A stretch of 64,000 nt of DNA, taken from Pigmentiphaga kullae (GTDB taxonomy: Bacteria; Pseudomonadota; Gammaproteobacteria; Burkholderiales; Burkholderiaceae_B). How positions within the stretch are numbered: position 1 is the stretch's first letter; every line of letters begins with the position of its first letter. The notes under the pieces are model-generated. The model was not told the DNA's origin. It was given only the letters and a program-made list of their open reading frames with translations, and did not search any database. Location: NCBI RefSeq assembly GCF_004216695.1, contig NZ_SGXC01000001.1, positions 2,108,001 to 2,172,000 on the forward strand, in the 5' to 3' direction. Both the position numbers and the translations under genes were made by a program. This document shows positions 20,427 to 60,394 of the stretch, one piece after another.

Positions 20427-22491
20427 CTAGAACTTGTAGGTCGCGCTGGCGATGATGCTGCGGCGCGCGCCGTACCAGCAATCCCCGCGCGACAGGCACG
20501 TCGCCACGTAGGTCTTGTCGGTCAGGTTGTTCAGGTTGAGCGCGTAGCGCCAGTGGTCGGTCTCGTACGAGACCATGGCGTCGAACAGCGTGACCGAGGG
20601 CGTGGTGGGGGCCACGCCGTCGCGGAACGAGCTCATCCAGCGTACCCCGGCACCCAGCGCGAAGCCGTTCACGTCGCCCACGGCGAAGCGCCATTTGCCC
20701 CATGCCGCCGCCTGGTGGCGCGGCATGCCTTCGAGCGACTTGTCGAGGTCGATGTAGTTGTAGTGCGCGATCAGGTCGAAGCTGCGGGTGATCGCGCCGC
20801 GGTATTCGAGCTCCAGGCCCTTGGTCTTGGTGGCGCCCACCTGGACGGAATAGAGCGGATTGGTCGGGTCGCCCGCCAACTGGTTCTTTTCCTTGAGCTG
20901 GTAGACCGAGGCGGTGGCCATGCGCCGGCCGTCGGCCGACTGGTGCTTGACGCCCACTTCCCACTGTTCGCCGCGCAGGGGCTTGAAGCGTGCGCCGCTT
21001 TTGTCGGTGCCGGGTACCGGCGTGAAGGATTCGCTGTAGTTGACGTAGGGCGCCAGGCCGTTGTCGGCCACGTACATCACGCCCAGGCGCTTGGTCGTGG
21101 CATTGTCCTTCTCGTCGGCGCTGCCGGCCAGTCCGGCCGTGGTGCGGTCGTGGCGGATGCCGGCGGCCACGATCCAGTGCCTGCCTATCTTCATCTGGTC
21201 CTGCAGATACAGGCCTGCCTGGCGCAGCGTGTAGCGCGGCTCGTCGGTCAATTCGGGCGGCGTGTAGTTGCCGTAGACCGGATCGTAGGCGTCGATGGTG
21301 CCGCCGTCGGCGATGCCGCTGCGCCGGTCGCGGCGGTAGCGGGTCCAGTCGAAGCCCAGCAGGACCTGGTGCTGCACGATACCGGTCTGCAGCTTGCCGG
21401 TCAGGTGCTGGTCCAGCGTGTCGATGCGTACCTTGGTGATGGCGTCGTCCGCATAGCGGGCGATGCGGCGCTGGTTGATCGGGTCGGCGGCCCAGCCGCC
21501 CGGATCGGTGAACGAGTCCGCATAATGCGTCAGGTAATCCACCTTGTTGTTGGCATGGCGAAAGCCCTGGCTGAAGGACCACTGGTCGTTGAAGCGGTGC
21601 TCGAACAGCCAGCCGAACGAGGTGCGGCGCGAATCGTAGCGGTCGTGGCCGGGTTCGCCGATGAAGCGGCTGGTGGGAATCCTGCCGTTGGGGTTGTCGG
21701 TGCGCATGCCCGACCACGGCATGAACTGCGCGGTCGAGCCGCTTTCATCCTTCTGCCACAGGCCTTGCAGCGTGAGCGAGGTCGATGCGCTGGGACGCCA
21801 CGTCAGCGAGGGCATGACCAGGCTGCGGTTGTCCTTCACATGATCGACCTGGGTGTCGGCATCGCGCTTGAGCGCGACGAGCCGGTACAGCCACTGTCCG
21901 TCGGCCGTCAGCGGCCCGGTCAGGTCCACCTGCGCCTGCTTGCGGCCGCGGTTGCCCAGTTGTATGCCCGCTTCGCCCTGGAATTCGGCCTGCGGGCGCT
22001 TGCTGACCATGTTGATGATGCCGCCGGTGCTGCCCTGGCCGTACAGCATGGCGGCCGGCCCGCGCAGCACCTCCAGGCGCTCCAGCGTGTAGGGTTCGAT
22101 ACGGGTGGTGCTGGTGTAGTAGTCGTAGTGCTGGCGCAGGCCGTCCAGGTACAGGGTGGGCTCGGTGCCGCGTATGCGGACCGAATCGGCGCGCGAGTCG
22201 ATGCCATAGGCGTCGGACCGCACGCCGGCCGCGTAGCCCAGCGCGTCCTGCAGATTGGTGGCCCCCTGGTCCGTCAACTGGTCGCGCGTGACCACGGTGA
22301 CCGACTGCGGCGTCTCGTGCAATGGCGTGTCCGTCTTGGTGGCCGTGGCCGAGCGCCTGGCGGCGTAGCCGTAGACGGGGCCGGTGGCGGTCTCGCGCTC
22401 GGGGGTGGCTTCGACGCGGATTTCCTGCAAGGTGGCCGGTTCGGTGGTCTGCGCGAGCAGGGCGGCGGGGAGCGCGCCCAGCGCGGCGGCC
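20427..22491 (-). pseudogene. TonB-dependent siderophore receptor, 3' part (interrupted by prophage)
   Basis: About 688 residues of an outer-membrane siderophore receptor. The plug domain shows TPLHETPQSVTVVTRDQLTDQGATNLQDALGYAAGV and VRIRGTEPTLYLDGLRQ. The barrel runs to the C-terminal aromatic AATYKF-type end (IIASATYKF). TNLQDAL and ERLEVLRGPAAMLYGQGSTGGIINMVSKRP are typical of the FhuE/FpvA-type ferric-siderophore group. The frame lacks an ATG, and at 22485 it runs into prophage DNA. Its promoter, start codon and 14 codons lie across the prophage at 60297-60340. Joined over one target copy, they give 2103 nt, an uninterrupted 700-residue precursor with a normal signal peptide. As it stands the gene should be silent or yield a protein without a signal sequence. 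Confidence 0.93.
22486..22491. repeat. Target-site duplication, left copy (GCGGCC)
   Basis: GCGGCC immediately precedes the TGAA left terminus of the prophage and recurs right after the TTCA right terminus at 60297. A 5-6 bp duplication is the hallmark of Mu-like transposition. Confidence 0.9.
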
Positions 22492-22620
22492 TGAACAGAG
22501 GTGAGATATATCCACCCCGATAACCGCGATAAATCCGAAACAGGCCGGGATGAACCGGGAAATATCGGGAACCTGTTTGAAATAGCGTTGCGAGGGGTGT
22601 AATTCAGCCGGGCGGCCGAA
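22492..22620. repeat. Prophage left end with transposase-binding repeats
   Basis: 129 bp without a gene. It holds the terminal TGAA...GATATA...CCCGAT...GCGATAAATC block shared with the right end. AAACAGG (22538-22544) is inverted at 22572-22578 (CCTGTTT) around CCGGGA-type repeats. These are presumably MuA-binding sites. The AAACAGG dyad might also act as a weak terminator for the leftward early operon. Confidence 0.75.
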
Positions 22621-22986
22621 TCAGTCGAACAGGCGGCCCTGGTTTCGGGCGTGGAGGCGCTGCTGGACGCGGGCGACCATCTTGCGCACCCCGCTCTCGG
22701 TCATGCCCGCCAGCCGGGCGAGCGCGCCGTAATCCCCACGAAACTGCCTGTAGAGCGCCTCGTCACGGACCGCGATCCCATAGTGGTAGTCGGCCGGGAT
22801 CGTGATGACCTGGCCGCGCCAATGCTGGGCCAGGTGGTCGGCGATTGCGACGGCAACCTGCTCAGCCACAGCATCGGCCACCCCGTGCTCGAGGAGCACC
22901 TGGCGCGCGTGCGCCATGATGTCGGAGAGCAGCTCGTGGCGCTTGATCTCGGCGGGGGATACGCGCTTAGGCTGTGGGGCTTCCAT
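22621..22986 (-). CDS. Mor-family middle transcription activator
   Basis: 121 residues. The C-terminal half YHYGIAVRDEALYRQFRGDYGALARLAGMTESGVRKMVARVQQRL matches the Mor/C activator family of Mu-like phages, with a beta strand followed by an HTH. Mor switches on middle or late transcription. It is the last gene of the leftward early operon, with its stop 129 bp from the phage end. The opposite strand reading of the same DNA is a shadow. Confidence 0.88.
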   Translation of the reverse strand: MEAPQPKRVSPAEIKRHELLSDIMAHARQVLLEHGVADAVAEQVAVAIADHLAQHWRGQVITIPADYHYGIAVRDEALYRQFRGDYGALARLAGMTESGVRKMVARVQQRLHARNQGRLFD

Positions 22987-22994
22987 GTCGCCTC

Positions 22995-23627
22995 CTACTG
23001 GGGCCGCCCCGCCGAGCGGAGCAGCAGCTGGTACTCGTCCTCATGCATGCTCTCGACGTCGATCGATCGCCCCAGGACTTTCTGGGCGGCCGCGTCGATA
23101 GCCTTGCGGAGAGCCGCCAATCCGGCGCCACGGGATGAAAACGCGACGCCCAGCGCACCAGCTAGAGCAACGCGTCGGCCGTGGATGATTCGGTCGCGCC
23201 ACTTCTTGGCCTTCTCGATGCACTTGCTACGCTGCTCCCCGTCCAGCCAGTCGATCGCGGCGATGCCGGTTTCCCGCTGGACCCACGCGGCCAGAGCCGC
23301 CTCCGACGCGTCGCGGATGATGCCCAGGCTTGCGAGATCGAGCCATACGGCGCGAAGCTTGCTAGCCGTGGGAGATTGATCCAGCGGCCTCCCCTGACGG
23401 CCTCCACTGTCCTTGGAGCGAACCTTGAACCCAGTGCGCTTGAAATGGGCCAGCACCCGCTCCAGCTCTACCGCCGACATCTCGGCCGCGCTGGATTTGC
23501 CTGGTCTGGCAGCCGTCGTCGTAGCAGCCTGCAGGGCGGCACGATAGGTGTCCTTGTCCAGTTGCAGCTCGCGGGCGGCAACATGGACAAGGCGGATCAG
23601 CTGGAGGCGCCTGTCGGGCACGTTCAC
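22995..23627 (-). CDS. GemA-family regulatory protein (Mu gp16-like, DUF1018)
   Basis: 210 residues. RLQLIRLVHVAARELQLDKDTYRAALQAAT and SAVELERVLAHFKRTGFK at the N-terminus, then LRAVWLDLASLGIIRDASEAALAAWVQRETGI and DWLDGEQRSKCIEKAKKWRDRI, are typical of GemA/DUF1018 proteins. These modulate host gene expression and DNA supercoiling during Mu growth. The start overlaps the stop of the previous gene (ATGA at 23624). Only 8 bp separate its stop from the Mor start. Confidence 0.88.
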   Translation of the reverse strand: MNVPDRRLQLIRLVHVAARELQLDKDTYRAALQAATTTAARPGKSSAAEMSAVELERVLAHFKRTGFKVRSKDSGGRQGRPLDQSPTASKLRAVWLDLASLGIIRDASEAALAAWVQRETGIAAIDWLDGEQRSKCIEKAKKWRDRIIHGRRVALAGALGVAFSSRGAGLAALRKAIDAAAQKVLGRSIDVESMHEDEYQLLLRSAGRPQ

Positions 23628-24052
23628 GCCGCGCTCCCTGGGCCGAGGATCTTCTCGACGTTGATGCCATCCAAGTACTGCACGAGCTGGCGTGCTTGCT
23701 CCGCCGACAGCACCATGGACTTGCGGCCGAGTTCAAGGGTCAGCCGGCCGTTGCTTGCCAGCCCAACGGAGAATGGCCCCTTCTCGGGTATGCCCACTAC
23801 GCGGCTCCAGAGCTGTCGCGGCACAAGTACTTCGCTGCCATCGCCAAACGTTCCGATCATGGTGTATGCGGTCACTTTGCGGCCATTGGGAGCTGTTACC
23901 TGTTCAGCGCGCAGCCTTCCTCCGTCGACCAACCTCTTCAACAGGCTCGAGACAGCCGTGGCTTCCATGGCCATTTCTTCAGCGATCTCGACCGAGCGGA
24001 TACCCGGCCGGGCGGCGATCATATCCAGGATCTGGTCAGTTTTCGTGGGCAT
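23624..24052 (-). CDS. Winged-helix DNA-binding early protein
   Basis: 142 residues from the ATG at 24052. The N-terminus TKTDQILDMIAARPGIRSVEIAEEMAMEATAVSSLLKRLVDGGRLRAE is a clear winged helix-turn-helix. The C-terminus (about 75-142) has no match that I recognise. It overlaps gemA by 4 bp and sits one base from the gene upstream. A regulatory role in the early operon is likely. Exact function unknown. Confidence 0.8.
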   Translation of the reverse strand: MPTKTDQILDMIAARPGIRSVEIAEEMAMEATAVSSLLKRLVDGGRLRAEQVTAPNGRKVTAYTMIGTFGDGSEVLVPRQLWSRVVGIPEKGPFSVGLASNGRLTLELGRKSMVLSAEQARQLVQYLDGINVEKILGPGSAA

Positions 24053-24053
24053 G

Positions 24054-24374
24054 TCATTCTCCAGAGGAACATGCCGGCGCGCCCAGGGCGGCCTTGATGG
24101 CCTCGGTGCGCATCGCCCGGTAAATGACAACGGGATCGTTGCCGCCGGTACGCTCAACATTGATCCGTGCCGCAGCAGCCCCGGCTGCAATCATGGCCGC
24201 CGTGATCTCCTCCGCGAAAACCTCGGCAGACTGCGCTGGAGCCACATAGTCCTCGACGATGTCGATGATCTGTCGCAGTGCTTCGTACTTCGGAATGCCC
24301 GCCGGTGCGGTGTACTGGCGCACCACCTCCTTGATCTGTGCAATGGCCGCTTCGGCTGCCAAGCTCTTTTCCAT
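24054..24374 (-). CDS. Hypothetical early phage protein
   Basis: 106 residues from the ATG at 24374 (SD AGGAGA). Largely helical and Ala-rich with no recognised domain. Tight packing with the next gene (one base) supports expression. An upstream in-frame extension lacks an SD. Confidence 0.7.
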   Translation of the reverse strand: MEKSLAAEAAIAQIKEVVRQYTAPAGIPKYEALRQIIDIVEDYVAPAQSAEVFAEEITAAMIAAGAAAARINVERTGGNDPVVIYRAMRTEAIKAALGAPACSSGE

Positions 24375-24451
24375 CGTGAATCTCCTATGGCTGCTCATCA
24401 GTACCGAGCCACCACGCTCGGCAGACCGCCCCACCGGGCGGTTTCGCTTCC

Positions 24452-24733
24452 CTACGCGTTCACGGCGTCCTTCAGGGCCTTGGTGGCGCTGAACTTCACG
24501 GACGTGGAGGCCGGGATCTGAATGGACTCGCCCGTGGCCGGATTCCGGCCCGTGCGCGCGGCGCGCTGGCTAGTCGAAAACTTGCCGACGCCCGGCAGGA
24601 CGAACTCGGCCCCGCTGGCCAGCGCCTGGGACAGCGTGCCAGCCAGGCTGTCGAGCACAAGCTCGGTGTCCTTGCGCGAGTAGCCGGTTTCGTCGGCGAC
24701 CTTGGCGATCAATTCTTTTTTGGTGAGGCTCAT
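24452..24733 (-). CDS. HU-family DNA-binding protein
   Basis: 93 residues, full HU length. MSLTKKELIAKVADETGYSRKD, LVLDSLAGTLSQALASGAEFVLPGVGKFSTSQRAARTGRNPATGE and the C-terminal VKFSATKALKDAVN are diagnostic. The intercalating Pro lies in the RNPATGE arm. HU bends DNA and is needed for assembly of the Mu transpososome, so a phage-borne copy next to MuA and MuB may make transposition independent of host HU levels. Start ATG at 24733. Confidence 0.94.
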   Translation of the reverse strand: MSLTKKELIAKVADETGYSRKDTELVLDSLAGTLSQALASGAEFVLPGVGKFSTSQRAARTGRNPATGESIQIPASTSVKFSATKALKDAVNA

Positions 24734-24783
24734 GTCGATTTCCTTGTGGTTGTGCCGGCGGAGATACCCGGCCGGCTGCGGGT

Positions 24784-25020
24784 TTAAACGTCGGTAGGGC
24801 CTATCTGGACGCGGTCGCCCACGGCGGTGACCGCGTCCATGTAGGCCCGAACGGTCGCCGGATCGCTGGTCAGGACGATCACGGCGCATACGGGTTGTCC
24901 GTCTTTCAGGAAGGTCATCGCCACGTCGTCGCTGCCGGCCTCGGCCATTTCGCCGACCAGCGCGCCGAGGCGCGTATTGAAGTAGCTCGGCCAGGGGCGC
25001 GTGAGCAGCTCGATCCGCAT
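24784..25020 (-). CDS. Hypothetical early phage protein
   Basis: 78 residues from the ATG at 25020. MRIELLTRPWPSYFNTRLGALVGEMAEAGSDDVAMTFLKDGQPVCAVIV looks like a small alpha/beta protein. No family recognised. One base separates it from the DUF3164 stop upstream, supporting co-translation. Confidence 0.7.
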   Translation of the reverse strand: MRIELLTRPWPSYFNTRLGALVGEMAEAGSDDVAMTFLKDGQPVCAVIVLTSDPATVRAYMDAVTAVGDRVQIGPTDV

Positions 25021-25021
25021 C

Positions 25022-25636
25022 TCAGGCTCCCGCGACGTCGAGCGGAATCTGGCGATACCGATCGGTGTCGTCGATGCGCTCGTAGACACGCACGTAGCTC
25101 TTGCTGCCCACGATCTGTATCGAGTCGCTGATTGCGCGCATTGCCTCCTGCCAGCGGGCATCCTTGATATCGACACGGCGCAAAGACAACACGCGGCTGG
25201 TGCTGAGCTTGCCGGCCTTGTCGACCTCGAACGCGCGATCAACGATCGCCCGCAGTTCGGGGCCAGCCGAGGCCGTCCATTCGTTCAGGCATTCGTCGAT
25301 CAGAGCCTTGGCGGCCTGGAGACGTTCGTCGAAGACGATCTGGTCGTCCGTAGCGCGCAGAATCTTGATGCGGCCGTCGAACGACAGCAGCGTCACATTG
25401 CCCTTGGCGCCGCCCAGATTGATGCCGTACTGCTCGGCGGACATGTCAACGAACGCCTCGATGTCAGCGAACGTGCTTTGTTTCAACGCCTTGAGCTGGC
25501 CGGACATCGCGCGGGCCTTTTCCGCAATCTCGCGCACCAGGGCGTCGCGGGCCAGGTCGATCGGCTTGATAGCGTCCACCGGGATCAGTCGACCCTGGCC
25601 GTCCTCCATGTAGCCGTCTGGAACGGGTTTGGTCAT
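25022..25636 (-). CDS. DUF3164-family early phage protein
   Basis: 204 residues from the ATG at 25636 (AGGAGT upstream). PDGYMEDGQGRLIPVDAIKPIDLARDALVREI at the N-terminus, then DGRIKILRATDDQIVFDERLQAAKALIDECLNEW and LSLRRVDIKDARWQEAMRAISDSIQIVGSKSYVRVYER, match DUF3164, found beside the transposition genes of Mu-like phages. Molecular function is not established. Confidence 0.88.
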   Translation of the reverse strand: MTKPVPDGYMEDGQGRLIPVDAIKPIDLARDALVREIAEKARAMSGQLKALKQSTFADIEAFVDMSAEQYGINLGGAKGNVTLLSFDGRIKILRATDDQIVFDERLQAAKALIDECLNEWTASAGPELRAIVDRAFEVDKAGKLSTSRVLSLRRVDIKDARWQEAMRAISDSIQIVGSKSYVRVYERIDDTDRYRQIPLDVAGA

Positions 25637-25671
25637 CGAAGTACTCCTGTCGAAGGTTGAGAATCTGCAGC

Positions 25672-25959
25672 TCAATGGGCGACCGGCTTGCCGATCTGGA
25701 GCTGCTGTAGGCGGTGGCCGGCCAGGTGCCGCAATTGCCGCGAGAGACCCGTTGCATCCCCCGATTCGTACATGTCGATCAGGCCGCTGATCAGGTCCGC
25801 CTGGCGTCGAGCGATGACGGTCATTTCGTGCAGCAACGCCGTCGCTTGCAGGCAGGTTTCGTTCAAGCGATCGAGCTCTGCCCGCAGTTCTCGCTCGTCC
25901 TGGATGGCGTCGGGATTGGCCAGAGTCGGCCCCTGGGTGATCTGGATGCGTCCGCTCAT
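25672..25959 (-). CDS. Hypothetical early phage protein (coiled coil)
   Basis: 95 residues from the ATG at 25959, which overlaps the upstream gene stop by 4 bp. RELRAELDRLNETCLQATALLHEMTVIARRQADLISGLIDMYE is predicted as a long amphipathic helix or coiled coil. No family recognised. Confidence 0.7.
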   Translation of the reverse strand: MSGRIQITQGPTLANPDAIQDERELRAELDRLNETCLQATALLHEMTVIARRQADLISGLIDMYESGDATGLSRQLRHLAGHRLQQLQIGKPVAH

Positions 25960-26324
25960 AGCCCGCTCCCCGTGGCCGACTCGTCGATGCCCACGAAATC
26001 GGGCGACGCCGGCCAGCACACATCGACGCCCTCCAGCGATCCGTGCTCAGTACGGTTCATGCCTTCGGCCACCAGGCAGCGAATCGAGATGAACCGGCGC
26101 AGCAGCCGCTGCGACTGCCAGTCGTAGGGGTGGACGTCGAGGGTGATGAGCGGGCAGCCGCGATCCATGCGCACCCATTCCCCGTTGATCGTGAAGCCGA
26201 GTTCGCGCAGCCGGCGGCCCGCCGCGTTCAGCGCAGACAGTCGAGCGATGAAGTCGGATGTGAAGATGCGCGAGGGGCGCAGGTCGACGGTGTCGGCCTC
26301 TACCAGTTGCAGGGTCGTGGTCAT
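25956..26324 (-). CDS. Hypothetical early phage protein
   Basis: 122 residues, start ATG at 26324, two bases after the MuB stop. LRPSRIFTSDFIARLSALNAAGRRLRELGFTINGEW and DWQSQRLLRRFISIR suggest a small alpha/beta protein. No family recognised. The overlapping stop/start (ATGA) with the next gene supports it being real. Confidence 0.75.
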   Translation of the reverse strand: MTTTLQLVEADTVDLRPSRIFTSDFIARLSALNAAGRRLRELGFTINGEWVRMDRGCPLITLDVHPYDWQSQRLLRRFISIRCLVAEGMNRTEHGSLEGVDVCWPASPDFVGIDESATGSGL

Positions 26325-26326
26325 GG

Positions 26327-27583: not shown

Positions 27584-27596
27584 GGCGCGATGCCTC

Positions 27597-29375: not shown

Positions 29376-29379
29376 GACG

Positions 29380-30405: not shown

Positions 30406-30417
30406 GGTATGTGCTCC

Positions 30418-30729: not shown

Positions 30730-30783
30730 TTCGACAGTCCCCCGTGTGATACCGTCCAGTTCTTGACACCGGGAACAGCCGTC

Positions 30784-32149: not shown

Positions 32150-32179
32150 GCTGGGCTCCTGATCGGATTGACGGTGGAG

Positions 32180-50324: not shown

Positions 50325-50335
50325 ACGAGGACGAT

Positions 50336-51103: not shown

Positions 51104-51153
51104 CCAGACGCCGTTCATCAGTACGACCAACGATTCAGAGTAGGTAAACACAA

Positions 51154-51615
51154 ATGACCAGATCCGTTTTTCAAACCCCAGCTCGACGCGAAATAGCCGG
51201 CCGCGCGGTCGATATATTGAAACTCCCATTCGAGGTATTTGACGATGCTCTGACCGTCGGCAACTGGATGCAGGACCGGAGCGACATGTTCGATCTCACA
51301 GCCCTGGAGGCGCTCCGGAAGGGCGACCCGGTGCGCGCCGCGCTGGACCGCCTGCTGGCGGCCTGCGTCATGCCGATCGAGGACGACCAGGCGGTAGCGC
51401 TGACGGTTGCAGACATCGGCGCCATGCCGATCGCGGCGATCGCCGAGGCCGTCTACGTCGTTCTCGAGGAGAACCTGGATTTTTTTATGGCAACCCTGGC
51501 GGCCATCCAGCCGATACAGCAGCGGCTGATGTCGATTGGTTTGCAGTTGCGCAGCAGCTCATCGCTGCCGGTCACGCCAGGGATGATATCCGCCGCTACT
51601 CCTACGCCGAACTGA
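51154..51615 (+). CDS. Tail assembly chaperone (gpG-like, zero-frame product)
   Basis: 153 residues. FQTPARREIAGRAVDILKLPFEVFDDALTVGNWM and RKGDPVRAALDRLLAACVMPIEDDQAVALTVADIGAMPIAAIAEAVYVVLEENLDFF are typical of the helical chaperone coded just before the tape measure. After FF the zero frame continues only to a low-complexity tail, while the -1 frame continues as a plausible domain. See the frameshift product. Confidence 0.85.
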   Translation: MTRSVFQTPARREIAGRAVDILKLPFEVFDDALTVGNWMQDRSDMFDLTALEALRKGDPVRAALDRLLAACVMPIEDDQAVALTVADIGAMPIAAIAEAVYVVLEENLDFFMATLAAIQPIQQRLMSIGLQLRSSSSLPVTPGMISAATPTPN

Positions 51616-51707
51616 TCGGCTATCTCAACGCGATCGCAGCTCAGAATGAACGAAACGCCGAACGCCAGGCAGCGCATACGGCTGTTGCCCTGCATGGCGG
51701 CGGCTAG
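51154..51707 (+). CDS. Tail assembly chaperone, predicted -1 frameshift fusion (GT-like)
   Basis: A heptamer T TTT TTT at 51480-51486 lies in the correct register (GAT TTT TTT). Slipping back one base gives an open frame to TAG 51705-51707, nine bases before the tape-measure ATG. The new C-terminus reads DWFAVAQQLIAAGHARDDIRRYSYAELIGYLNAIAAQNERNAERQ, a convincing conserved tail-chaperone extension. Fusions of this kind (lambda G-GT) recruit the tape measure to the tail tube subunits. Confidence 0.8.
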
Positions 51708-51715
51708 GGTGCTCC

Positions 51716-54700
51716 ATGGCGGCTGATCTCACAGTAGCCCTGCGCGTCCAGGCCAAGCTGGACGATGCACGCAAGGCTGTCCAAAGCCTGAAGGGCGACA
51801 TTGTCGACCTGGGCCAGGCGGGCCAGCAGGCGACCACCGGCATGGCAAATGGCGCCACGGCGCCGTTCGATGCTGCTGCGAAATCGGCCCGCGATGCCGC
51901 CCGGGCGGCGGAGACCGTCGTCGCCACTCAGGAGGACCTGGCCGAGGCCGTCGACCAGGTCACGTCGGCGGAGGAGCGCCGGGCGCGCGCACTCGCTCAG
52001 TCGGCGCCGAACGAGGAGCAAGAGCGCAAGGCGCAGGAGTTCAAGAAGAAACAGGCCCAGGCCGCCAACGATGCCGGCGACGCAACGGAGAAAGAGCGCC
52101 AGGCCCTGGACCGCCTGGTCGCCATCCTGGATCCGGCCGCTGGCCAGGCCCAGCAGCTCGCCACGGCCCAGGCAACGCTGAACGCCGCCCTCGACAAAGG
52201 GGCGATCTCCGCTGATCAGCACACCCGCATGATGGCGCTTGTGCAGCAGCGCTATGCTGGCACGCGGGTTTCGGCTGCCCAGACCGCCGCGGCGATGCGC
52301 ATGCTGCCGGCGCAGTTCACGGACATCGCGACCTCGATCGTCTCCGGCATGCCGATCTGGATGGTCGCTATCCAGCAGGGCGGCCAGATCAAAGATTCGT
52401 TCGGCGGGATCAAGCCTGCGCTGGCAGCCATGCGTGCCGCGATTGGCCCTGCATCTCTCGCGCTGGGTGGCCTGGCGGCCGTCGGCGGCCTGCTGGTGGC
52501 GAACATGGTCGCGGCCGAGCGGCGGGCGCTAGCGCTGGCCGTAGCAGTGCAGACGACCGGCAACGCCGCGGGCGCCACGGCCGGTCGTATCGAGGCGGTG
52601 GCCGAGCAGGCCAACCGCATCAGCGGGATCAACGAACGTGTGGCGGAGGACGCCGCCGTCGCCATGGTTCAGGCCGGTCGCCTGGGAATGCCGGTCATCG
52701 CCAACCTGGTCACAGCGGTGGAAGGCTACGCCAAGGCCACCAAGTCCAGCACCGACGCCGCCGCGGCCAACCTGGCCAAGCTGTTTGTGAACCCGGCCCA
52801 GGCCGCCAAGCAGCTCGACGACCAGTTCAACCTGCTGACCGCCGCCGAGCGCCGGCACATCGCGCTGCTGGTGGAACAGGGGCGCACCGAGGAGGCCCAG
52901 CTCCAGCTCAGCCAACGCCTGGCCGAGCAGTTCGGCACGGTCCTGCCGCGCAACCTGGGCGTGCTCCAACGCGCCTGGGAGGGGGTAACTGGCGCCATCG
53001 GCGGGGCGTTCGCCGCGATGCTGCGGTGGGGCCAGGCCCCCACCCTCGAGAAGCAGATCGAGGCGCAGAAGACCGCGATCGCCAATCTGGAGTCCCAGAT
53101 CGCCGCAGGCGGCACCCGGGCCGCCCTCAAGCTGCCAGCGATGCTGAAGGCGGCCCAGGAGCAGTTGGCCACGCTGCAGCAGCAACAGGCGACGGAGGCG
53201 GCCAAGGCCGACGAGAGCGCGGCCAAGGTAACCAAGGATCGCCGCATCAAGCTGCTGCGCGAGCAGTTCGATGCGGAGACCAAGACGTACCAGACTGGCG
53301 CGGAGCAGCTCCAGAAAGAAAAGGAGAAGCTGGACGAGCTGCTCGCCGCCGGCCCCGATGGCGGTGGCATCAGCCAGGCGGAGTACGACGCGCGCCTCAA
53401 GGCGATCCGGGACCGGGCGAACAAGGGCACGCCGGCCGGCGACCGCGCTGGCCAGGTGGCCGCAGCGCGGATCAAGGCCGACCTGCAGATCCTGCAGGCC
53501 CAGATTCGGGACAGCGACGCCCTGGTGGTGCAGGAACTCGAGCGCGGGCGGATGAGCCTGAACGACGCTTACGCCCGCCGGATCGCGGACATCAACCGCG
53601 ACTACGACGCCCAGCGCGAGGCTCTGGAGAAGGAACTGACCGCGCCCGGGATGACGTCGTCTCGGAAGATCGAAATCGCTGCCCAGATCAAGGTTCTGGA
53701 GCAGTCCAAAGCCGCCGCGAGCCGTGACCTCGACGCCTGGAAGCGGGCCGAAGAGTTGAAATTGGTCAACCTGACGATCCGGCTACGGGTGGACACGGCC
53801 GCGATCACGGGGAACTTCGACCGGGCGGCAATCGAGGCGCAGTTGCGGCAGCAATACGCTGCTGATCTCGAGGTTGCAGGCAGGAACGAGGATCCAGCCG
53901 CTGCTGCGAAAGACCGCGAACGGATCGAGTTGCTGATCCAGGCCGGCGCCGCCCAGGCCGAGTTCAACAACAAGTTGGCTGAGGCCCAGCGGCTGCAGGC
54001 GCAGCTCGCGGTGCTGGAGGAAGCCATCCAGCAGCGTGCCAGCACCGGGGCGATTAGTCAGATCGAGGCGCAAGGGCAGATCAATCACGCCCGCGCCGCC
54101 CAGATCCCCATGTTGCAGGCAATCGCCGCGGAGCTGCAACGCGTGCGCGACGCCCTGCCGCCCGGTGCCGCGGCGACTCTCGACAGCATGACGACGAGCC
54201 TCGGTACGCTGCAGAACCAGATCGCGGCGACGACTCCCGTTGTCGTCGACCTGGGCACGCGCATGCGCAACACGGTGATTGACGGGCTGGCCGACGCGGC
54301 AGGGTCGGCCGTGGCGAATTTCCACAACCTGCGTGACGCGGCGGCGAGCACCCTGAAGCAAATCGCAGGGGACATCGTGCGCAGCGGCATCAAGCAGTTG
54401 CTCACGGACGCGTTTACCCCGGGCTCCGCCGGCGGCGGCGGTGGATCGCTGGCCGGGAGCTTGTTCAGCGCGGTGGGGAGCATTTTCGGCTTCGCCCAGG
54501 GCGGCCTGATCCGCGGGCCAGGGACGGGGACGAGCGACAGCATCCCGGCCGTGGTCGATGGGTCGCGCCCGATCCGGGTTGCCAACAACGAGTTCATCCA
54601 GCCAGAGCGTGCGGTGAATCACTACGGCGTCGGCTTCATGGAGTCGATCCGCACGCTGAAATTCCCCCGGCCGTCCTTTGCGTTCGGCGGCCTGGTCCGC

Positions 54701-54937
54701 GCGTCGCAAGCGATCGCCAGGTATGCGACGGGTGGTTCGGTCGCGGCATCGAGCGCCGATGCCGCGCCGAACGTCGTCGTCCAGTTCACCAACAACGGCA
54801 CGCCCAAGCGCATCGCTAGCCAAAGCCAGGAACTGTCTGGCCGGGATCTGGTGCTGGCTGTCGTGCTCGAGGACATCGAGACGGGCGGTCCGATCAGCCG
54901 GGGGCTGCCGACCGTTTTCAACCGCGGCGGGGCATGA
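51716..54937 (+). CDS. Tail length tape-measure protein
   Basis: 1073 residues. N-terminal coiled coil rich in Ala/Glu (52-130), then the conserved MLPAQFTDIATSIVSGMPIWMVAIQQGGQIKDSFGGIKPALAAM region of lambda H-type tape measures with hydrophobic segments (LALGGLAAVGGLLVANMV). Further helical repeats follow, and a C-terminal Gly-rich part (AGGGGGSLAGSLFSAVGSIFGFAQGGLIRGPGTGTSDSIPA). Length sets a tail of roughly 150 nm by the usual 0.15 nm per residue rule. Confidence 0.93.
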   Translation: MAADLTVALRVQAKLDDARKAVQSLKGDIVDLGQAGQQATTGMANGATAPFDAAAKSARDAARAAETVVATQEDLAEAVDQVTSAEERRARALAQSAPNEEQERKAQEFKKKQAQAANDAGDATEKERQALDRLVAILDPAAGQAQQLATAQATLNAALDKGAISADQHTRMMALVQQRYAGTRVSAAQTAAAMRMLPAQFTDIATSIVSGMPIWMVAIQQGGQIKDSFGGIKPALAAMRAAIGPASLALGGLAAVGGLLVANMVAAERRALALAVAVQTTGNAAGATAGRIEAVAEQANRISGINERVAEDAAVAMVQAGRLGMPVIANLVTAVEGYAKATKSSTDAAAANLAKLFVNPAQAAKQLDDQFNLLTAAERRHIALLVEQGRTEEAQLQLSQRLAEQFGTVLPRNLGVLQRAWEGVTGAIGGAFAAMLRWGQAPTLEKQIEAQKTAIANLESQIAAGGTRAALKLPAMLKAAQEQLATLQQQQATEAAKADESAAKVTKDRRIKLLREQFDAETKTYQTGAEQLQKEKEKLDELLAAGPDGGGISQAEYDARLKAIRDRANKGTPAGDRAGQVAAARIKADLQILQAQIRDSDALVVQELERGRMSLNDAYARRIADINRDYDAQREALEKELTAPGMTSSRKIEIAAQIKVLEQSKAAASRDLDAWKRAEELKLVNLTIRLRVDTAAITGNFDRAAIEAQLRQQYAADLEVAGRNEDPAAAAKDRERIELLIQAGAAQAEFNNKLAEAQRLQAQLAVLEEAIQQRASTGAISQIEAQGQINHARAAQIPMLQAIAAELQRVRDALPPGAAATLDSMTTSLGTLQNQIAATTPVVVDLGTRMRNTVIDGLADAAGSAVANFHNLRDAAASTLKQIAGDIVRSGIKQLLTDAFTPGSAGGGGGSLAGSLFSAVGSIFGFAQGGLIRGPGTGTSDSIPAVVDGSRPIRVANNEFIQPERAVNHYGVGFMESIRTLKFPRPSFAFGGLVRASQAIARYATGGSVAASSADAAPNVVVQFTNNGTPKRIASQSQELSGRDLVLAVVLEDIETGGPISRGLPTVFNRGGA

Positions 54938-54938
54938 C

Positions 54939-55301
54939 GTGGCGTACCCAACCTTTCCGGACTACCCGGAGTTCCTGGTCGACAACTACAAGCTGCAGCC
55001 GGCGGACAACGTCGATCGCACCGAGTTCGAGGACGGCTATGTCAAACAGGATCCCCTCAATACGCGCCAGCGATACGAGGTGCCCGTGCAGTACCGGCTG
55101 CATACGCAGGCCGAGCAGCTCGCCTTCGAATCCTGGCGGCGGCAGGCCCTGCGGTCCGGTGCGCTGCACTTCGAGTGGTACGACCCGGTCTACCACGAGC
55201 TGCGCCGGGCCAGGATCGTCGGCGGCACGGTGGAATACACCCCGCTGACGGACCGATTCGACGAATGGACGGTCTCGTTCTCCCTGGAGTACTGGGTCTG
55301 A
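54939..55301 (+). CDS. Minor tail protein
   Basis: 120 residues from GTG 54939, one base after the tape-measure stop. YPTFPDYPEFLVDNYKLQPADNVDRTEFEDGYVKQDPLNTRQRYEVPVQYRLHTQAEQLAFESWRRQ and FDEWTVSFSLEYWV are typical of small distal-tail proteins located after the tape measure. Confidence 0.8.
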   Translation: MAYPTFPDYPEFLVDNYKLQPADNVDRTEFEDGYVKQDPLNTRQRYEVPVQYRLHTQAEQLAFESWRRQALRSGALHFEWYDPVYHELRRARIVGGTVEYTPLTDRFDEWTVSFSLEYWV

Positions 55302-55302
55302 C

Positions 55303-55779
55303 ATGGCGCGTCTCAAGTCCTCGCGGTACGTCGAAAATGCCCTGGCGCTGTCGGCCGACGAGGCGCCGATCTACCTGCTCGAGATCTCGCATGTTCTCGT
55401 GGCCACGCCGCTGCGATTCGTCAACGACAACCAGGACGTCGTCAGCAACGGCAACAACTACGTCGCCTGCGCGTTCGCGGTGCAGCTGCCGTCCGATCAG
55501 GATCGGACGACGCCTCGGGCCAGGCTGTCCATCGATACCCTGGGAGGCGATATCTCGGCGTTCCTCGAGCGCACACACGGCGGCCGGGGCGCGGTCCTCA
55601 AGGTGTTGCAGATCCTGCGCAGCCAGCCCGATTTCATCGAAGACGAGTTCGTGCTGGACATGAGCAACGTGGTCGCGGCCGTGCCAACCATCCAGGCCGA
55701 CCTAGGCTACGACGACGTGCTCAACAAACCCGGTACGCCTTACACCTATCGGCCGGAGACGGCCCCGGGGTTGTTCTGA
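55303..55779 (+). CDS. DUF1833-family minor tail protein
   Basis: 158 residues. PIYLLEISHVLVATPLRFVNDNQDVVSNGNNYVACAFAVQLPSDQDRTTPRARLSIDTLGGDISAFLE matches DUF1833, a distal tail family in siphoviruses with Mu-type heads. Its final base overlaps the next start. Confidence 0.9.
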   Translation: MARLKSSRYVENALALSADEAPIYLLEISHVLVATPLRFVNDNQDVVSNGNNYVACAFAVQLPSDQDRTTPRARLSIDTLGGDISAFLERTHGGRGAVLKVLQILRSQPDFIEDEFVLDMSNVVAAVPTIQADLGYDDVLNKPGTPYTYRPETAPGLF

Positions 55780-56153
55780 TGCCGCATTGGTCCGATTCCT
55801 ACATCGATATTCCCCACGCGCAGCGCGACTGCGGCGAGCTTGTGGAGCTGGTGCTGCGCGACGTGTTCGGCCGCGATATGACGTTTCCCCGCAAGCAGTC
55901 GTCCAACCTGCTGCACCGCGCGCGCCTGATCACCAAGTACGCCCAGGATTTCGCGCGCCCCGTCGACGCGCCGTTCGATGGGGCCGGCGTGCTGATCCTG
56001 GCCAGGGGCCGGGCAGCACACATCGGCCTGTACTGCGCGATCGAGCAGGGGTACATCCTTCACAGCGACGAGTGGTTTGGCGCATCGGTGCGCGAACCCG
56101 TCAACCGTCTGGAAAACCGGTATGTCATCCAAGGCTACTACGCCTGGCTCTAA
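55779..56153 (+). CDS. NlpC/P60-like tail assembly peptidase (lambda K-like)
   Basis: 124 residues. AQRDCGELVELVLRDVFG supplies the catalytic Cys and AAHIGLYCAIEQGYILHS the His of the papain-like NlpC/P60 fold. Shorter than many K proteins. It probably acts in tail tip maturation or local peptidoglycan cleavage during DNA entry. Its 3' end overlaps the J-like gene by 32 bp. Confidence 0.83.
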   Translation: MPHWSDSYIDIPHAQRDCGELVELVLRDVFGRDMTFPRKQSSNLLHRARLITKYAQDFARPVDAPFDGAGVLILARGRAAHIGLYCAIEQGYILHSDEWFGASVREPVNRLENRYVIQGYYAWL

Positions 56154-59100
56154 AAAAGCCGGCGTCCTCGAGGCGGTCTATCTGCCGAACCCGCTGATGC
56201 CCGCCAGCCGCCGCACGATCACCCGGCTGCTGGGCACCGGCCACGACACAGTGGACAGCGTGGTGCGGCGCCTGGCGCTGCAGGCGACCCCGCTCGAGGT
56301 CACGCTGAACGCCAGGTCCATCCCGCGGCGGCGCTGGCCGCGGGTGCGCGTTCGTGCGGGGGATCTGCTGGTCATGCGGCAGGTCGTGCGGGGAACCGGT
56401 GCGGGTGAGGCCGCCGCGGCCTCGGCTGTTGCCGCGGGGAAGACCGCAGCCACGGCCGCGGCGATCAATCTGGCCGTGACCTTCGCGGTGAACCTGGCAA
56501 TCGGCGTGGCGCTGTCGTTCGTCGCGCAAGCGCTGTTCGGCCCGAAGCGCCAGGCGGCCGCGAAGGCCCGCAACGATCCGGCGAACTATTCCCTGGACGG
56601 CGGCAGCAACCAGGTGCGCACCTACGGCCCGCTTCCTCTGGTGCTGGGCGAACACCAGGTGTTCCCGGACTACGCGTCGCGGCCATGGTCCGAGAACGTG
56701 CCTGACCCGAGCACCACGCACGAGGTGGTCAACAACACCCCGCGCTACGAGTCCCAGACCGCGCCGGCATTCGTCTGGGATGCGATCGCCGACGAGCCTG
56801 AGGCGCCCTGGGTCGAGCTGCTGCCGCCCGACATCTCCGGCTACGGGTATTACGGTGATGGCCAAGTCCGTGAATACGAACGGGTGGGCGGGACGGTTAC
56901 GCAGCCCCATACGTTCGTCACGCGGTACAACCCCGGCGGCCCATTCGAGCACATTGCGACCTACGACAGCTATGCGGCCTGGCAGACCGGTGGCGAATTC
57001 CCTGGGCCGCCGCCAACTTGGCACGACCCCGGCACGTATCTCGACATCATCGTTGGTTATGGGTATTACGAGACGTTCAACAGCGAGCGGCTCTGCAGCA
57101 TATTTAATCTCGGCTTCGGCGACCTGGAGGTCTCGGCGCTGCGCATCGGCTCCTCGCCTCTCGAACAGTACTCCGCGTGGTCCCGGCATGACAGCTGGGT
57201 GCCCGCTGGCCAGCTCGATCGCACCCGGCTGACGGGCTACACGACGGACGGCTGGATCGGCGACGATTTCCCGACCAACGTTCAGATCGCGGAGGGCGGA
57301 AAACTCGAGCAGCACGAGGGCGTCGACAACGATGGCTGGATCGAGCGCCGCAGTAGCGGGGTGGGCTGCAACTACGTCCAGTTCGACATCGCCGGCCGGC
57401 TGTTCCGGTCTGCCGGCGGCGGTATTGAGACGCTCGCCTGCGATTTCGAGGGCCAGTATCGCAAGGTCGGCGACGCGGGCTGGACCGCGTTTCCGTTCTC
57501 GATCTCGATCTCGAGCGGCAGCACAACGCCGGTGCGACATACGTTCCGGCACTACATGCCCGAGGTGGCCAACTACGACGTACGCGTGCGACGCCTCACC
57601 CCAGACCCGACCGAGGCGAACGACGTCAGCGAGCTGGAGCTGACGCGGATCAAATTCTTTCGCCCCGATCCCGCGCTATACCCCGCCCAGCGGCGCCTGG
57701 CGCTGCTGATCAGGGCCTCGGGCCAGCTCAATGGGCGTCTGGAGCGCCTGAGCGCGTTCGTGAGGCCCCGGCATTGGATCTGGGACAGCGCAGCGCCGTG
57801 GACGCCAGGGCTCTATCCCGGCGACGGGGCAGCGCCCTGGGTGTGGGGAAACACGACGAACCCCGCCTGGCTCTTCCTCTACTACGCCCGGGGCGGCTTC
57901 CTGAACAGCAGCGCGACGCCCGCCTACCTGGGCGGTGGCCAGGGCTGGCTGGATCGGCCCGACCCTACGAACGGCCCCCGCCTGTTCGGCGCCGGCCTGA
58001 CGAATGACCGGCTGGACTATGCCGCGATCATCGCCTGGGGGCAGTTCTGCCAGGCAAACGGCCTGGAATGCCGCATGGTGGTCATCGAGCAGATGTCCGC
58101 CGGGGAGGTTCTGGACGTCATCGCTGGAGCCGGCCGCGCCTCGAAAACCTGGGCGACGGGGCGGCTGGGCGTCGTCTGGGAGGCGCCTGGCCAGCCGACC
58201 GTCGGTTCGTTCGGCATGGCCAACATCGTCGCAGGCTCGTTCCAGATCGCGTATGACACCGATGAATCGGTCGACGAGTTCGTGCTGGCCTACACCAACA
58301 GCGACGACGACTACGCGGCGGACACGGTGTATTCCCCAGTGCCGGGTGTGCCGCTGCCGGTTAACCAGAAGTCCAGCCCGGCCGGTTACGCCATGCCTCG
58401 TAGCCAGGCCCAGCGGCAGAACAACCTGGTCGCGGCGTCCAAGTACTTCCACCGGCGCAGGATCATGTGGCAGAGCGGCTGGGATGCCGCGCTCGTGCAA
58501 CGCGGCGACATCGTGGCCCTGGCCCACGATCTCACGCAATGGGCGTACAGCGGCCGCCTGGTCGGCCTCGAGGCCGCCGGTGGCCAGATCCGCCGCATCT
58601 CGCTGTCGTGCTGGGTCGAGAATCCGTCCGGCGCCGCGACGTTCTACGTCTGGGTGCGGCGGCCGGACAACACCTGGGCCAGCGTGGAGTGTGTCCCGCC
58701 AGTCGGCCGGGTACAGGAACTGGACGTGGTCAGCGCGTGGCCGGTGGCCAGCGCGCCGGGCGTGCTGTCGTCGACGTTAGGCACCGAGAACGCTGGCAGC
58801 GTGTTCCCGAGGTCAATCCCGGAGGACTGGACGCTGTTCGCTGGCCCGACGCCCACCCCGGGTAAGCGAGTGCGGATCATGGCCATGGAGCCGGGCGAGC
58901 GCGGACGCGTCCGGATCACCGCCCGCGACGAATACGAGGAGTACTACCCGTTGGAATATGGCTGGAGCGGCACCCCGGCCATCCCGGCGGACGATGGCCT
59001 GGTCGCCCGGGCGTTCAACCCTGCGCTGGCTCCCGCGGCCGCTGGCGCCTGGATGTTGCGGTGGGAGCTGGACAACGCCTATGGCGCCGAGGTAACCGTG

Positions 59101-59277
59101 GCGGCCAATCATGGGCCGTTCGAACAGGTGCCTATCAGTGGGGCGATCGCCGTGGCGGGCCGGGAGCTGCTGCTACCGGCCTATCCCGCCGGCACCCATC
59201 TCGACATCCACGTGCTGCCGAAGGCGGCGGGCACGCCCATCGCGATTGAAGGGGCGACCCTCGAAGCAACGGTTTGA
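56122..59277 (+). CDS. Host-specificity tail tip protein (gpJ-like)
   Basis: 1051 residues from ATG 56122 (GGAAAACCGG upstream). An N-terminal part similar to lambda I/J (RSIPRRRWPRVRVRAGDLLVMRQVV), a membrane-like helix (AAINLAVTFAVNLAIGVALSFVAQALF), then the J core with DPANYSLDGGSNQVRTYGPLPLVLGEHQVFPDYASRPW, a large central domain, the conserved GRASKTWATGRLGVVWEAPGQPTVGSFGMANIVAGSF segment (about 680-720) and C-terminal fibronectin-like strands. It binds the host receptor and forms the tail tip. Confidence 0.88.
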   Translation: MSSKATTPGSKKAGVLEAVYLPNPLMPASRRTITRLLGTGHDTVDSVVRRLALQATPLEVTLNARSIPRRRWPRVRVRAGDLLVMRQVVRGTGAGEAAAASAVAAGKTAATAAAINLAVTFAVNLAIGVALSFVAQALFGPKRQAAAKARNDPANYSLDGGSNQVRTYGPLPLVLGEHQVFPDYASRPWSENVPDPSTTHEVVNNTPRYESQTAPAFVWDAIADEPEAPWVELLPPDISGYGYYGDGQVREYERVGGTVTQPHTFVTRYNPGGPFEHIATYDSYAAWQTGGEFPGPPPTWHDPGTYLDIIVGYGYYETFNSERLCSIFNLGFGDLEVSALRIGSSPLEQYSAWSRHDSWVPAGQLDRTRLTGYTTDGWIGDDFPTNVQIAEGGKLEQHEGVDNDGWIERRSSGVGCNYVQFDIAGRLFRSAGGGIETLACDFEGQYRKVGDAGWTAFPFSISISSGSTTPVRHTFRHYMPEVANYDVRVRRLTPDPTEANDVSELELTRIKFFRPDPALYPAQRRLALLIRASGQLNGRLERLSAFVRPRHWIWDSAAPWTPGLYPGDGAAPWVWGNTTNPAWLFLYYARGGFLNSSATPAYLGGGQGWLDRPDPTNGPRLFGAGLTNDRLDYAAIIAWGQFCQANGLECRMVVIEQMSAGEVLDVIAGAGRASKTWATGRLGVVWEAPGQPTVGSFGMANIVAGSFQIAYDTDESVDEFVLAYTNSDDDYAADTVYSPVPGVPLPVNQKSSPAGYAMPRSQAQRQNNLVAASKYFHRRRIMWQSGWDAALVQRGDIVALAHDLTQWAYSGRLVGLEAAGGQIRRISLSCWVENPSGAATFYVWVRRPDNTWASVECVPPVGRVQELDVVSAWPVASAPGVLSSTLGTENAGSVFPRSIPEDWTLFAGPTPTPGKRVRIMAMEPGERGRVRITARDEYEEYYPLEYGWSGTPAIPADDGLVARAFNPALAPAAAGAWMLRWELDNAYGAEVTVAANHGPFEQVPISGAIAVAGRELLLPAYPAGTHLDIHVLPKAAGTPIAIEGATLEATV

Positions 59278-59287
59278 AGACGGGCGA

Positions 59288-59317
59288 CGTGGCCAGGTGC
59301 TGGAACACCTGGCCACG
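59288..59317 (+). terminator. Strong hairpin after the J-like gene
   Basis: CGTGGCCAGGTG and CACCTGGCCACG form a perfect 12-bp stem with a 6-nt loop, 10 bp after the J stop. No U-run follows (CCCCC), so it is not a standard intrinsic terminator. It may be an mRNA stabiliser or a Rho-linked end. The gap 59318-59423 has no other feature apart from AT-rich sequence before the methylase start. Confidence 0.45.
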
Positions 59318-59423
59318 CCCCCAGATTGCAGAGCGAGCTGCAAGCCAGGCAAGGCCCGCCACCCTGTACAGAGCGTGCCAAGCCTACCAGAAATATTTCA
59401 ACCTACGAAATAGGCTTGCAAGA

Positions 59424-60212
59424 ATGAACCCTCAACCGATCATCCCGTGGCTGGGCGGCAAGCGCCGCCTGGCCGACACGCTGCTCACCCGCTTCCCGCC
59501 CCATACCTGCTACGTCGAGGTGTTCGCCGGCGGGGCCGCGCTCTATTTCCTGAGGCACCCGGCCGAGGTGGAGGTCATCAACGATGTCAACGGCGAGCTG
59601 GTGAACCTGTACCGGGTCGTCAAGCACCACCTCGAGGAGTTCGTCAGGCAGTTCAAATGGTCCCTGGCCAGCCGGGAGATGTTCAAGTGGCTGCAGCTGA
59701 CCGTGCCGGCGACGCTGACGGACATCCAGCGGGCGGCCAGGTTCTTCTACCTACAGCACAACGCGTTCGGTGGGCGGGTCGAGAGCCAGTCGTGGGGCAC
59801 TGCGACTACGGCGCCGCCGGTCAACCTGCTTAGGATCGAGGAGAACCTGAGCGCAGCGCATTTGCGCCTGGCCAGCGCCTATATCGAGAACCTGGACTGG
59901 CAGGAGTGCATCCAGCGCTACGATCGCCCCCACAGCTTCTTCTACATGGATCCGCCGTACTGGGAGACCGAGGGCTATGGCGTGGCGTTCGCCTGGGAGC
60001 AGTACGAGCGCATGGCCGATGTGCTCAGGTCCCTGAAGGGAAAAGCGCTGGTTAGCCTGAACGACCATCCGGACGTCCGGCGGGCGTTCCAGGGGTTCCA
60101 GATGGAGGCCGTCGACATCTCGTACACGCTGGCAGTTGGCAAGGCGGCCGACCGGCGCGAGCTGATTATCTACAGCTGGGACCGGGACGCCGAGCCGGCC
60201 GGGCTTTTCTAG
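59424..60212 (+). CDS. D12-class N6-adenine DNA methyltransferase (Dam-like)
   Basis: 262 residues from ATG 59424; an in-frame extension upstream crosses the hairpin and is unlikely. PIIPWLGGKRRLADTLLTRFP is the N-terminal AdoMet motif, YVEVFAGGAALYF (30-42) motif I, and YMDPPYW with DPPY at 176-179 the catalytic motif IV. Typical of phage Dam-like enzymes that methylate GATC-type sites. As the last gene before the right end it holds the place of mom in Mu, so protection of phage DNA from restriction is likely. Site specificity cannot be read from sequence. Confidence 0.9.
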   Translation: MNPQPIIPWLGGKRRLADTLLTRFPPHTCYVEVFAGGAALYFLRHPAEVEVINDVNGELVNLYRVVKHHLEEFVRQFKWSLASREMFKWLQLTVPATLTDIQRAARFFYLQHNAFGGRVESQSWGTATTAPPVNLLRIEENLSAAHLRLASAYIENLDWQECIQRYDRPHSFFYMDPPYWETEGYGVAFAWEQYERMADVLRSLKGKALVSLNDHPDVRRAFQGFQMEAVDISYTLAVGKAADRRELIIYSWDRDAEPAGLF

Positions 60213-60296
60213 CGTGGAATTAGGTTACTGGTGGTGAAATCCCTCGACCGGAGATTTATCGCACCAATCGGGCCGCTTATATCGCGCGGCGCTTCA
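60213..60296. repeat. Prophage right end with transposase-binding repeats
   Basis: 84 bp without a gene. Read inward from 60296 it begins TGAAGCGCCGCGCGATATA, then CCCGAT and GCGATAAATC, the same blocks at the same offsets as the left end. Presumed MuA-binding sites. Confidence 0.8.
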
Positions 60297-60302
60297 GCGG
60301 CC
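60297..60302. repeat. Target-site duplication, right copy (GCGGCC)
   Basis: Matches the six bases at 22486-22491, just outside the other prophage end. Confidence 0.9.
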
Positions 60303-60340
60303 AGGCCCGCGCGGCGCAGTGGGGTGGAGAAGGATGGCAT
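60297..60340 (-). pseudogene. TonB-dependent siderophore receptor, 5' fragment (start codon and 14 codons)
   Basis: ATG at 60340 followed by PSFSTPLRRAGLA then two bases of an Ala codon up to the insertion site. Joined to the left fragment after removing one GCGGCC copy it continues AALGALPAALLAQTTEPA, a standard signal peptide with cleavage near AQT. The fragment has the Fur box 40 bp upstream and reads into the prophage right end, antisense to the methylase gene. Confidence 0.88.
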
Positions 60341-60379
60341 GGGAACGACGTCCGACGTGGGTGGAAATAAATCTTTTAA

Positions 60380-60394
60380 TGATAATTATTATCA
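60380..60394 (-). promoter_or_regulatory. Fur box of the interrupted siderophore receptor gene
   Basis: TGATAATTATTATCA is an exact 7-1-7 palindrome matching the Fur consensus core. It lies in AT-rich DNA 40 bp before the receptor start codon at 60340 and about 158 bp from the tupA-like stop. Under iron limitation Fur should release it and drive leftward transcription. Confidence 0.88.

What the first reader, a model, noticed from the sequence alone, without database searches (positions are those of the whole stretch)
20427..60394. Prophage splits a Fur-controlled TonB siderophore receptor inside its signal-peptide codons, restorable by exact excision
The receptor frame at 20427-22485 lacks an ATG. 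An orphan Fur box, ATG and 14 codons sit on the far side of the prophage at 60297-60394. Removing 22492-60296 and one GCGGCC copy gives 2103 nt without a stop and a normal signal peptide. Lysogeny thus costs the host one siderophore uptake route, or removes a receptor used by rival phages or bacteriocins. All of this is seen directly; the selective reading is inference.
Basis: seen in the sequence. Interest (0 to 1): 0.8.

Follow-up and report, generated by a model that had tools for sequence, protein, structure and literature searches.

The report
Transposable prophage interrupting an iron-uptake receptor
A virus that spreads by jumping into many different places in bacterial chromosomes has landed in the first codons of one of the bacterium's iron-uptake receptor genes and very probably switched it off, which looks like an ordinary, recent insertional mutation rather than a reversible switch.

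Summary
A 37,805-bp prophage (22492-60296) splits a TonB siderophore receptor gene of a Pigmentiphaga-like bacterium after 14 codons plus 2 bases. Five of ten other genomes of the genus carry the receptor at full length; all five show the unbroken site with Fur-type palindrome and ATG, and the flanks overlap there by exactly 6 bp. The mechanism differs from the title. This is a B3-type transposable (Mu-like) phage: transposase pair, Mor activator, B3 gene order, B3-like TG...CA ends and a 6-bp target duplication. Fourteen relatives show the same ends and fourteen other 6-mers, in varied genes. No integrase was found in 40 ORFs scanned. Mu does not excise when it transposes, and its insertions revert rarely (PMC3562280, passages). 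So excision restores the gene on paper only; no switch is indicated. Selection for receptor loss is unproven. One coincidence remains: a related prophage in another family (G290) also sits in the signal-peptide codons of a TonB receptor, whereas 10 two-sided and 25 one-sided viral-contig sites showed no such receptor. Interest is low, with that loose end.

The parts
20427..22491 (-). Receptor gene body cut off from its start: plug and beta-barrel domains (685 codons plus stop below 22484)
   Evidence: Pfam PF07715 and PF00593; TIGR01783 above cut-off; best solved match enantio-pyochelin receptor 3qlb, then CntO/FoxA and FhuA; 93-97% DNA identity to five congeners
22486..22491 (.). Left copy of the 6-bp target-site duplication GCGGCC
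22492..60296 (.). B3-type transposable prophage, 37,805 bp, TGAAC...TTCA ends, GCGATAAATC in inverted orientation at offset 34 from both ends
22621..22986 (-). Mor-like late transcription activator at the left end, as in phage B3
   Evidence: PF08765; phrog_532; B3 ORF1 annotation
26327..27622 (-). MuB-like DNA transposition protein
   Evidence: phrog_296, integration and excision; 39% to B3
27597..29507 (-). Transposase A
   Evidence: phrog_310 transposase; 33% to B3, 58% to phage Komp_PAO1_1
36230..60212 (+). Packaging, head and tail genes, ending with a D12-class DNA methyltransferase at 59274-60212
60297..60302 (.). Right copy of the 6-bp target-site duplication
60297..60340 (-). Stranded receptor start: ATG plus 13 further codons and 2 bases
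60379..60406 (-). Promoter-like hexamer pair overlapping the Fur-type palindrome (60381-60393), now reading towards the prophage right end
   Evidence: consensus matches only

Best explanation
A temperate transposable phage of the B3 type inserted by transposition, probably recently, into the signal-peptide codons of a TonB siderophore receptor gene that has a Fur-type palindrome before it. Its transposase joined the TG...CA phage ends to a staggered 6-bp cut, giving the two GCGGCC copies (duplication shown; the cut is inferred from Mu and B3). The receptor is separated from its promoter, start codon and export signal and so is very probably not made (inference). On induction the phage would multiply by copying itself to other sites and leave this copy in place (known for Mu, inferred here). 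The loss is an insertional mutation of the lysogen's lineage.
For: Exact 6-bp overlap of the flanks in 5 of 5 congeners with the full-length receptor and an unbroken start region there. Of 40 ORFs, 16 match phage B3 by tblastn at E 1e-4 or better, 15 of the 16 in B3 order (annotation). Ends resemble those of B3. With 5-, 6- and 7-bp duplications allowed, window, G179 and G431 each gave one solution, of 6 bp. Anchoring on the right end gave one 6-bp solution each for G290 and G211, with 5 and 6 bp allowed. Of 25 viral records whose far ends were fetched, 10 gave a left end at a 6-bp repeat (only 6 bp tested there). In all, 15 elements show 15 different 6-mers. Target-side frames include a penicillin-binding protein, transposase, permease, AcrB-type pump, kinase, phage head and solute-binding genes. 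B3 is reported to make 6-bp duplications (PMC8705779, passages). One transposase copy in the genome. The receptor frame is undamaged; derived codons on the window lineage are 8 synonymous and 0 nonsynonymous, against 13 and 3 in its nearest congener (too few to test).
Against: G285's ends were not found in either search, and 15 of 25 viral records gave no left end. G290's related prophage also lies in a TonB receptor's signal-peptide codons, which chance alone makes unlikely for that narrow zone. The repressor is only weakly identified, and 7 of 40 ORFs had no PHROGs match. Transposition is not wholly random in this group: 42 hotspots hold 5% of events for phage Ab30 (PMC5977238, abstract). 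Phage viability and receptor loss were not measured.
Confidence: 0.95

Rival explanations
1. The insertion was selected because losing the receptor protects the host from phages, bacteriocins or siderophore-antibiotic conjugates that use it, or because its siderophore is not needed.
For: The receptor resembles the enantio-pyochelin receptor, FoxA and FhuA, the last named a phage receptor in the PDB. The nearest paralogue is 30% identical. A related prophage in G290 also interrupts a TonB receptor in its signal-peptide codons.
Against: Five congeners keep the gene intact. Among relatives with both junctions found, 1 of 14 lies in a TonB receptor, and 0 of 25 further one-sided flanks of at least 150 bp show one (these see a receptor only if its body is on that side). 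TonB receptors fill roughly 0.6% of this genome (18 matches at an assumed 2.2 kb).
Confidence: 0.1
2. Site-specific integration with regulated excision (active lysogeny): the receptor start is an attachment site and excision switches the gene back on.
For: The flanks match in frame on paper, and the receptor frame is undamaged.
Against: No integrase among 40 ORFs scanned; the only integration-class genes are the transposase pair (shorter ORFs and some stretches not scanned). TG...CA ends, 6-bp duplication, and relatives at different targets. Mu does not excise when it transposes (PMC3562280, passages).
Confidence: 0.02
3. Assembly artefact joining a phage to the wrong place.
For: None found.
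Against: Both junctions show a correct 6-bp duplication and canonical phage ends, and the flanks are collinear with five congeners.
Confidence: 0.01

Closest known systems
Pseudomonas phage B3 (Beetrevirus) and B3-like transposable phages
   Same: Leftward early block beginning with Mor and a weak GemA match and holding the DUF3164, MuB-like, transposase and CII-like genes; rightward lysis, packaging, head and tail block; about 38 kb; similar TG...CA ends; 6-bp duplication
   Different: Transposase 33% identical; only 16 of 40 ORFs match B3 by tblastn; the methyltransferase (69% to that of B3) lies at the extreme right end instead of before the tape measure gene; Pigmentiphaga-like host
Pseudomonas phage Komp_PAO1_1
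   Same: Closest phage record by transposase, 58% over 94%; 40,044 bp
   Different: In the left 24.6 kb searched, DNA similarity only over about 1.1 kb of the transposase gene
Insertional mutation by phage Mu (mutator phage)
   Same: Transposition inactivates a host gene; short target duplication; stable insertion (PMC3562280, passages)
   Different: Mu makes a 5-bp duplication (PMC8705779, passages) and has a contractile tail (recalled)
TonB-dependent siderophore receptors of the FhuA/FoxA/enantio-pyochelin receptor group
   Same: Plug and barrel domains; best matches among solved structures
   Different: Below NCBIfam cut-offs for FhuA (476.9 of 803 bits) and FoxA (445.2 of 1300); ligand not assignable

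Membership tests
B3-like transposable phages | Transposase A and MuB-like ATPase encoded side by side | tested here: met
   phrog_310 and phrog_296 at 27600-29507 and 26330-27622; B3 transposase match E 4e-77
B3-like transposable phages | TG...CA ends with 6-bp target-site duplication (PMC8705779, passages) | tested here: met
   GCGGCC duplication shown against 5 empty sites; ends
B3-like transposable phages | Genome of about 36-39 kb with B3 gene order | tested here: met
   37,805 bp; 15 of 16 B3-matching ORFs, of 40 tested, in B3 order
B3-like transposable phages | Insertion at many sites | tested here: met
   For the group: 15 elements, 15 different 6-mers, varied genes. For this very phage only one site is known
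B3-like transposable phages | Replicative transposition and host DNA at virion ends | not testable with these tools
   needs induction and virion sequencing
Site-specifically integrating prophage | Tyrosine or serine integrase | tested here: not met
   none among 40 chosen ORFs of 102 aa or more; other ORFs not scanned
TonB-dependent siderophore receptor (TIGR01783) | Score above the curated cut-off | tested here: met
   355.4 bits against 223.5 for the downstream piece alone
FhuA or FoxA equivalog | Score above the curated cut-off | tested here: not met
   476.9 of 803 and 445.2 of 1300 bits

The most novel reading that the evidence does not exclude
Phages of this group are recovered more often than chance in the signal-peptide codons of TonB receptor genes, because lysogens that lose such a receptor survive better (for instance by escaping other phages or toxins) or because that stretch is a favoured target. 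The window (after 14 codons and 2 bases) and G290 (after 16 codons, in another family and genus, with a 57% identical transposase) are then two independent cases of one phenomenon.
Probability: 0.05. Interest if true: 0.6.

Novelty: new member of a known kind. Interest (0 to 1): 0.22.

Why it matters
It documents a B3-type transposable prophage in a Pigmentiphaga-like genome with ends and target duplication shown, and a clean case of gene inactivation by a mutator phage. A gene that can be rejoined on paper across a prophage is not thereby a switch: the kind of recombination enzyme must be checked first. The shared right-end signature found here (54 viral-contig stretches) gives a simple handle for mapping insertion sites of this phage group and for testing whether TonB receptors are hit more than chance.

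Tried and rejected
Site-specific integration and active lysogeny: set aside on transposition genes, ends and duplication. A start codon inside the phage that would rescue the receptor: no ATG, GTG or TTG before the upstream stop; only ATA, ATA, ATT and CTG among the rarer codons looked for. A close backup paralogue: none above 35%, and the best long match is 30%. Relaxed selection on the window lineage: too few changes; codons where the three outgroups disagreed were dropped. Ends of G285: not found. The relaxed end search gave a long list that was cut; the part I saw looked like chance matches, and the later anchored search replaced it. Relatives not examined for ends: 4 of 9 other transposase places (two in G006, G034, G138), and the further order-level hits. 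IMG/VR transposase relatives (18 loci): no junction seen in the tails printed; L107 is 100% identical over 16.5 kb and is probably this same genome. Defence-type genes: of 7 proteins only the methyltransferase matched PADLOC. Literature searches for a transposable or Mu-like prophage in a siderophore or TonB receptor gene: no such report noticed in the listings, of which I saw titles and abstract starts only. Pigmentiphaga with prophage: 3 papers listed, not opened. Papers opened: PMC5977238 (outline, abstract, passages), and passages only of PMC4378225, PMC3564109, PMC8705779, PMC6379469, PMC3562280 and PMC3820752.

After a first attempt to file, I rechecked the calls and ran. They resolved G290 and G211, brought the G290 coincidence and added 10 two-sided sites. 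Because of that fact the odds of the selective reading went from 0.08 to 0.1 and the novel case was exchanged (the earlier one, on antisense transcription from the stranded promoter, is now under things noticed).

Full report
Check of the observation. The element occupies 22492-60296 and is flanked by GCGGCC on both sides. The receptor reads on the minus strand; its frame continues into the phage up to a TGA at 22703 with no ATG, GTG or TTG above 22484. The stranded ATG begins at 60340, and a Fur-type palindrome lies at 60381-60393, the only match in the window.

Empty sites. Of 11 genomes of the genus (own included), 6 match the whole of 60297-60800, 3 match only its last 268 bases, and 2 do not match. 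The same 6 match the whole receptor piece, at 93-97% in the five others. In each of those five the two matches overlap by exactly 6 bp. Contig lengths and coordinates identify four of them as Pigmentiphaga sp. NML030171, Pigmentiphaga sp. NML080357, Alcaligenaceae bacterium SAGV5 and a Burkholderiales MAG. All five show the ATG, the first codons and the palindrome in place; in L051 this region is more diverged.

What the element is. PHROGs scans of 40 chosen ORFs give late activator, MuB-like protein, transposase, CII-like regulator, holin, endolysin, spanin, terminase, portal, minor head, protease, major head, tail, tape measure and methyltransferase genes; 7 of 40 had no match. Pfam confirms Mor and DUF3164. 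Of the 40, 16 match phage B3 by tblastn and 15 of these keep B3 order; the methyltransferase is the exception. The transposase is 33% identical to that of B3 and 58% to that of Komp_PAO1_1. B3 is reported to make 6-bp duplications, and TG-CA ends are described as usual for Mu- and B3-like phages (PMC8705779, passages). B3 and its relative PM105 are reported to cause auxotrophic mutations on lysogeny, while D3112 does not (PMC3564109, passages).

Relatives and target choice. In the family search 5 of 200 genomes had a match (own included): G179 at 74% and three others at 31-34%. In the order search 5 of 399 had one at E 1e-100 (own included), four at 49-61%. I fetched expected ends for five of these nine other places. 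Window, G179 and G431 each gave one 6-bp solution with 5-7 bp allowed. Anchoring on the right-end signature TGAAGCGnnGCG then gave one solution each for G290 (AAAGGG) and G211 (GCAGGG), and none for G285. A scan of IMG/VR for the signature found 54 stretches. The host side was at least 150 bp in 35 of them (L159 and L167 look like one insertion seen twice). For 25 records I fetched the far end, and 10 gave a left end at a 6-bp repeat.

What is hit. Frames reaching the junctions match a penicillin-binding protein (G179), a solute-binding protein (G211), and, in viral contigs, a transposase, FtsX-type permease, AcrB-type pump, restriction-type helicase piece, phage head protein, glutathione transferase, PAS kinase, histidine kinase, DUF218, DctP, macro-domain and TraG proteins; 8 of 20 viral-contig frames tested had no Pfam match. 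G431 lies seven codons after a possible ATG in a short frame.

The coincidence. G290's prophage interrupts a TonB receptor: plug and barrel follow directly on the right side, and an ATG with 16 codons stands on the left, so the cut falls in the signal-peptide codons, as in the window. Besides G290 no TonB receptor was found in the 14 two-sided relatives or in the 25 further one-sided flanks; the one-sided ones show a receptor only if its body is on that side. By my arithmetic, with 18 receptors per genome, a hit anywhere in a receptor among these sites has a chance of some 15-20%, but a hit in about 75 bp of signal codons only some 0.5%. This was noticed after the fact, so it is a lead and not a result.

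Consequence. The receptor loses promoter, start codon and export signal and is very probably not produced (inference). The genome holds 18 TonB-barrel matches, this one included, with no close paralogue. The ligand cannot be named. The frame below the junction has no stop or frameshift against congeners and no derived nonsynonymous codon at the positions that could be polarised, which fits a recent insertion.

Restorability. Loss of the element and one repeat would restore the site, but this is not how such phages move. In Mu, host junctions stay intact through the lytic cycle, insertions are extremely stable, and rare reversion comes with excision (PMC3562280, passages). I had no reads of this strain to look for an empty site.

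Novelty. Insertional inactivation by a transposable phage is textbook, and the phage is a new member of a known group.

Noticed in passing
L131:7589-7636 and L132:7832-9844 (G290): A related prophage in another family interrupts a different TonB receptor after 16 codons, in its signal-peptide codons, in the opposite orientation to the window's case.
   Followed up: partly
window 60140-60340 (-): The stranded receptor start continues into the phage as a 43-codon hybrid frame, antisense to the end of the methyltransferase gene; iron starvation might drive transcription into the prophage.
   Followed up: partly
window 59274-60212 (+): D12-class DNA methyltransferase at the extreme right end, 69% identical to that of B3, where the gene precedes the tape measure gene.
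   Followed up: partly
window 31925-32518 (+): No PHROGs match, but a weak tblastn match (32%, E 1e-6) to B3 9716-10105, overlapping the start of B3's repressor gene: possibly this phage's repressor.
   Followed up: partly
L139-L192: The right-end signature TGWAGCGSSGCGMGAWA with GATAA 19 bases on occurs in 54 IMG/VR stretches and marks the right end of this phage group, also where the transposase is only 31-35% identical.
   Followed up: partly
window 60529-62729 (-): Upstream of the receptor lie a substrate-binding protein resembling tungstate-binding TupA (below its cut-off) and an ABC ATPase.
   Followed up: no
window 17673-20375 (-): Isochorismatase-family hydrolase, TctC-type binding protein and LysR regulator follow the receptor on the same strand.
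   Followed up: no
L098, L101 (G006): The congener G006, whose receptor is intact, holds two other transposases related at 32-34% to this phage's.
   Followed up: no
L108: A metagenomic viral contig holds a stretch 94% identical over about 3.5 kb to this prophage, so close relatives circulate elsewhere.
   Followed up: no
L152 and L204 (IMG/VR 2882284595): A related transposable prophage appears to sit beside or in a P2-type phage head-completion gene, that is, in another phage.
   Followed up: no
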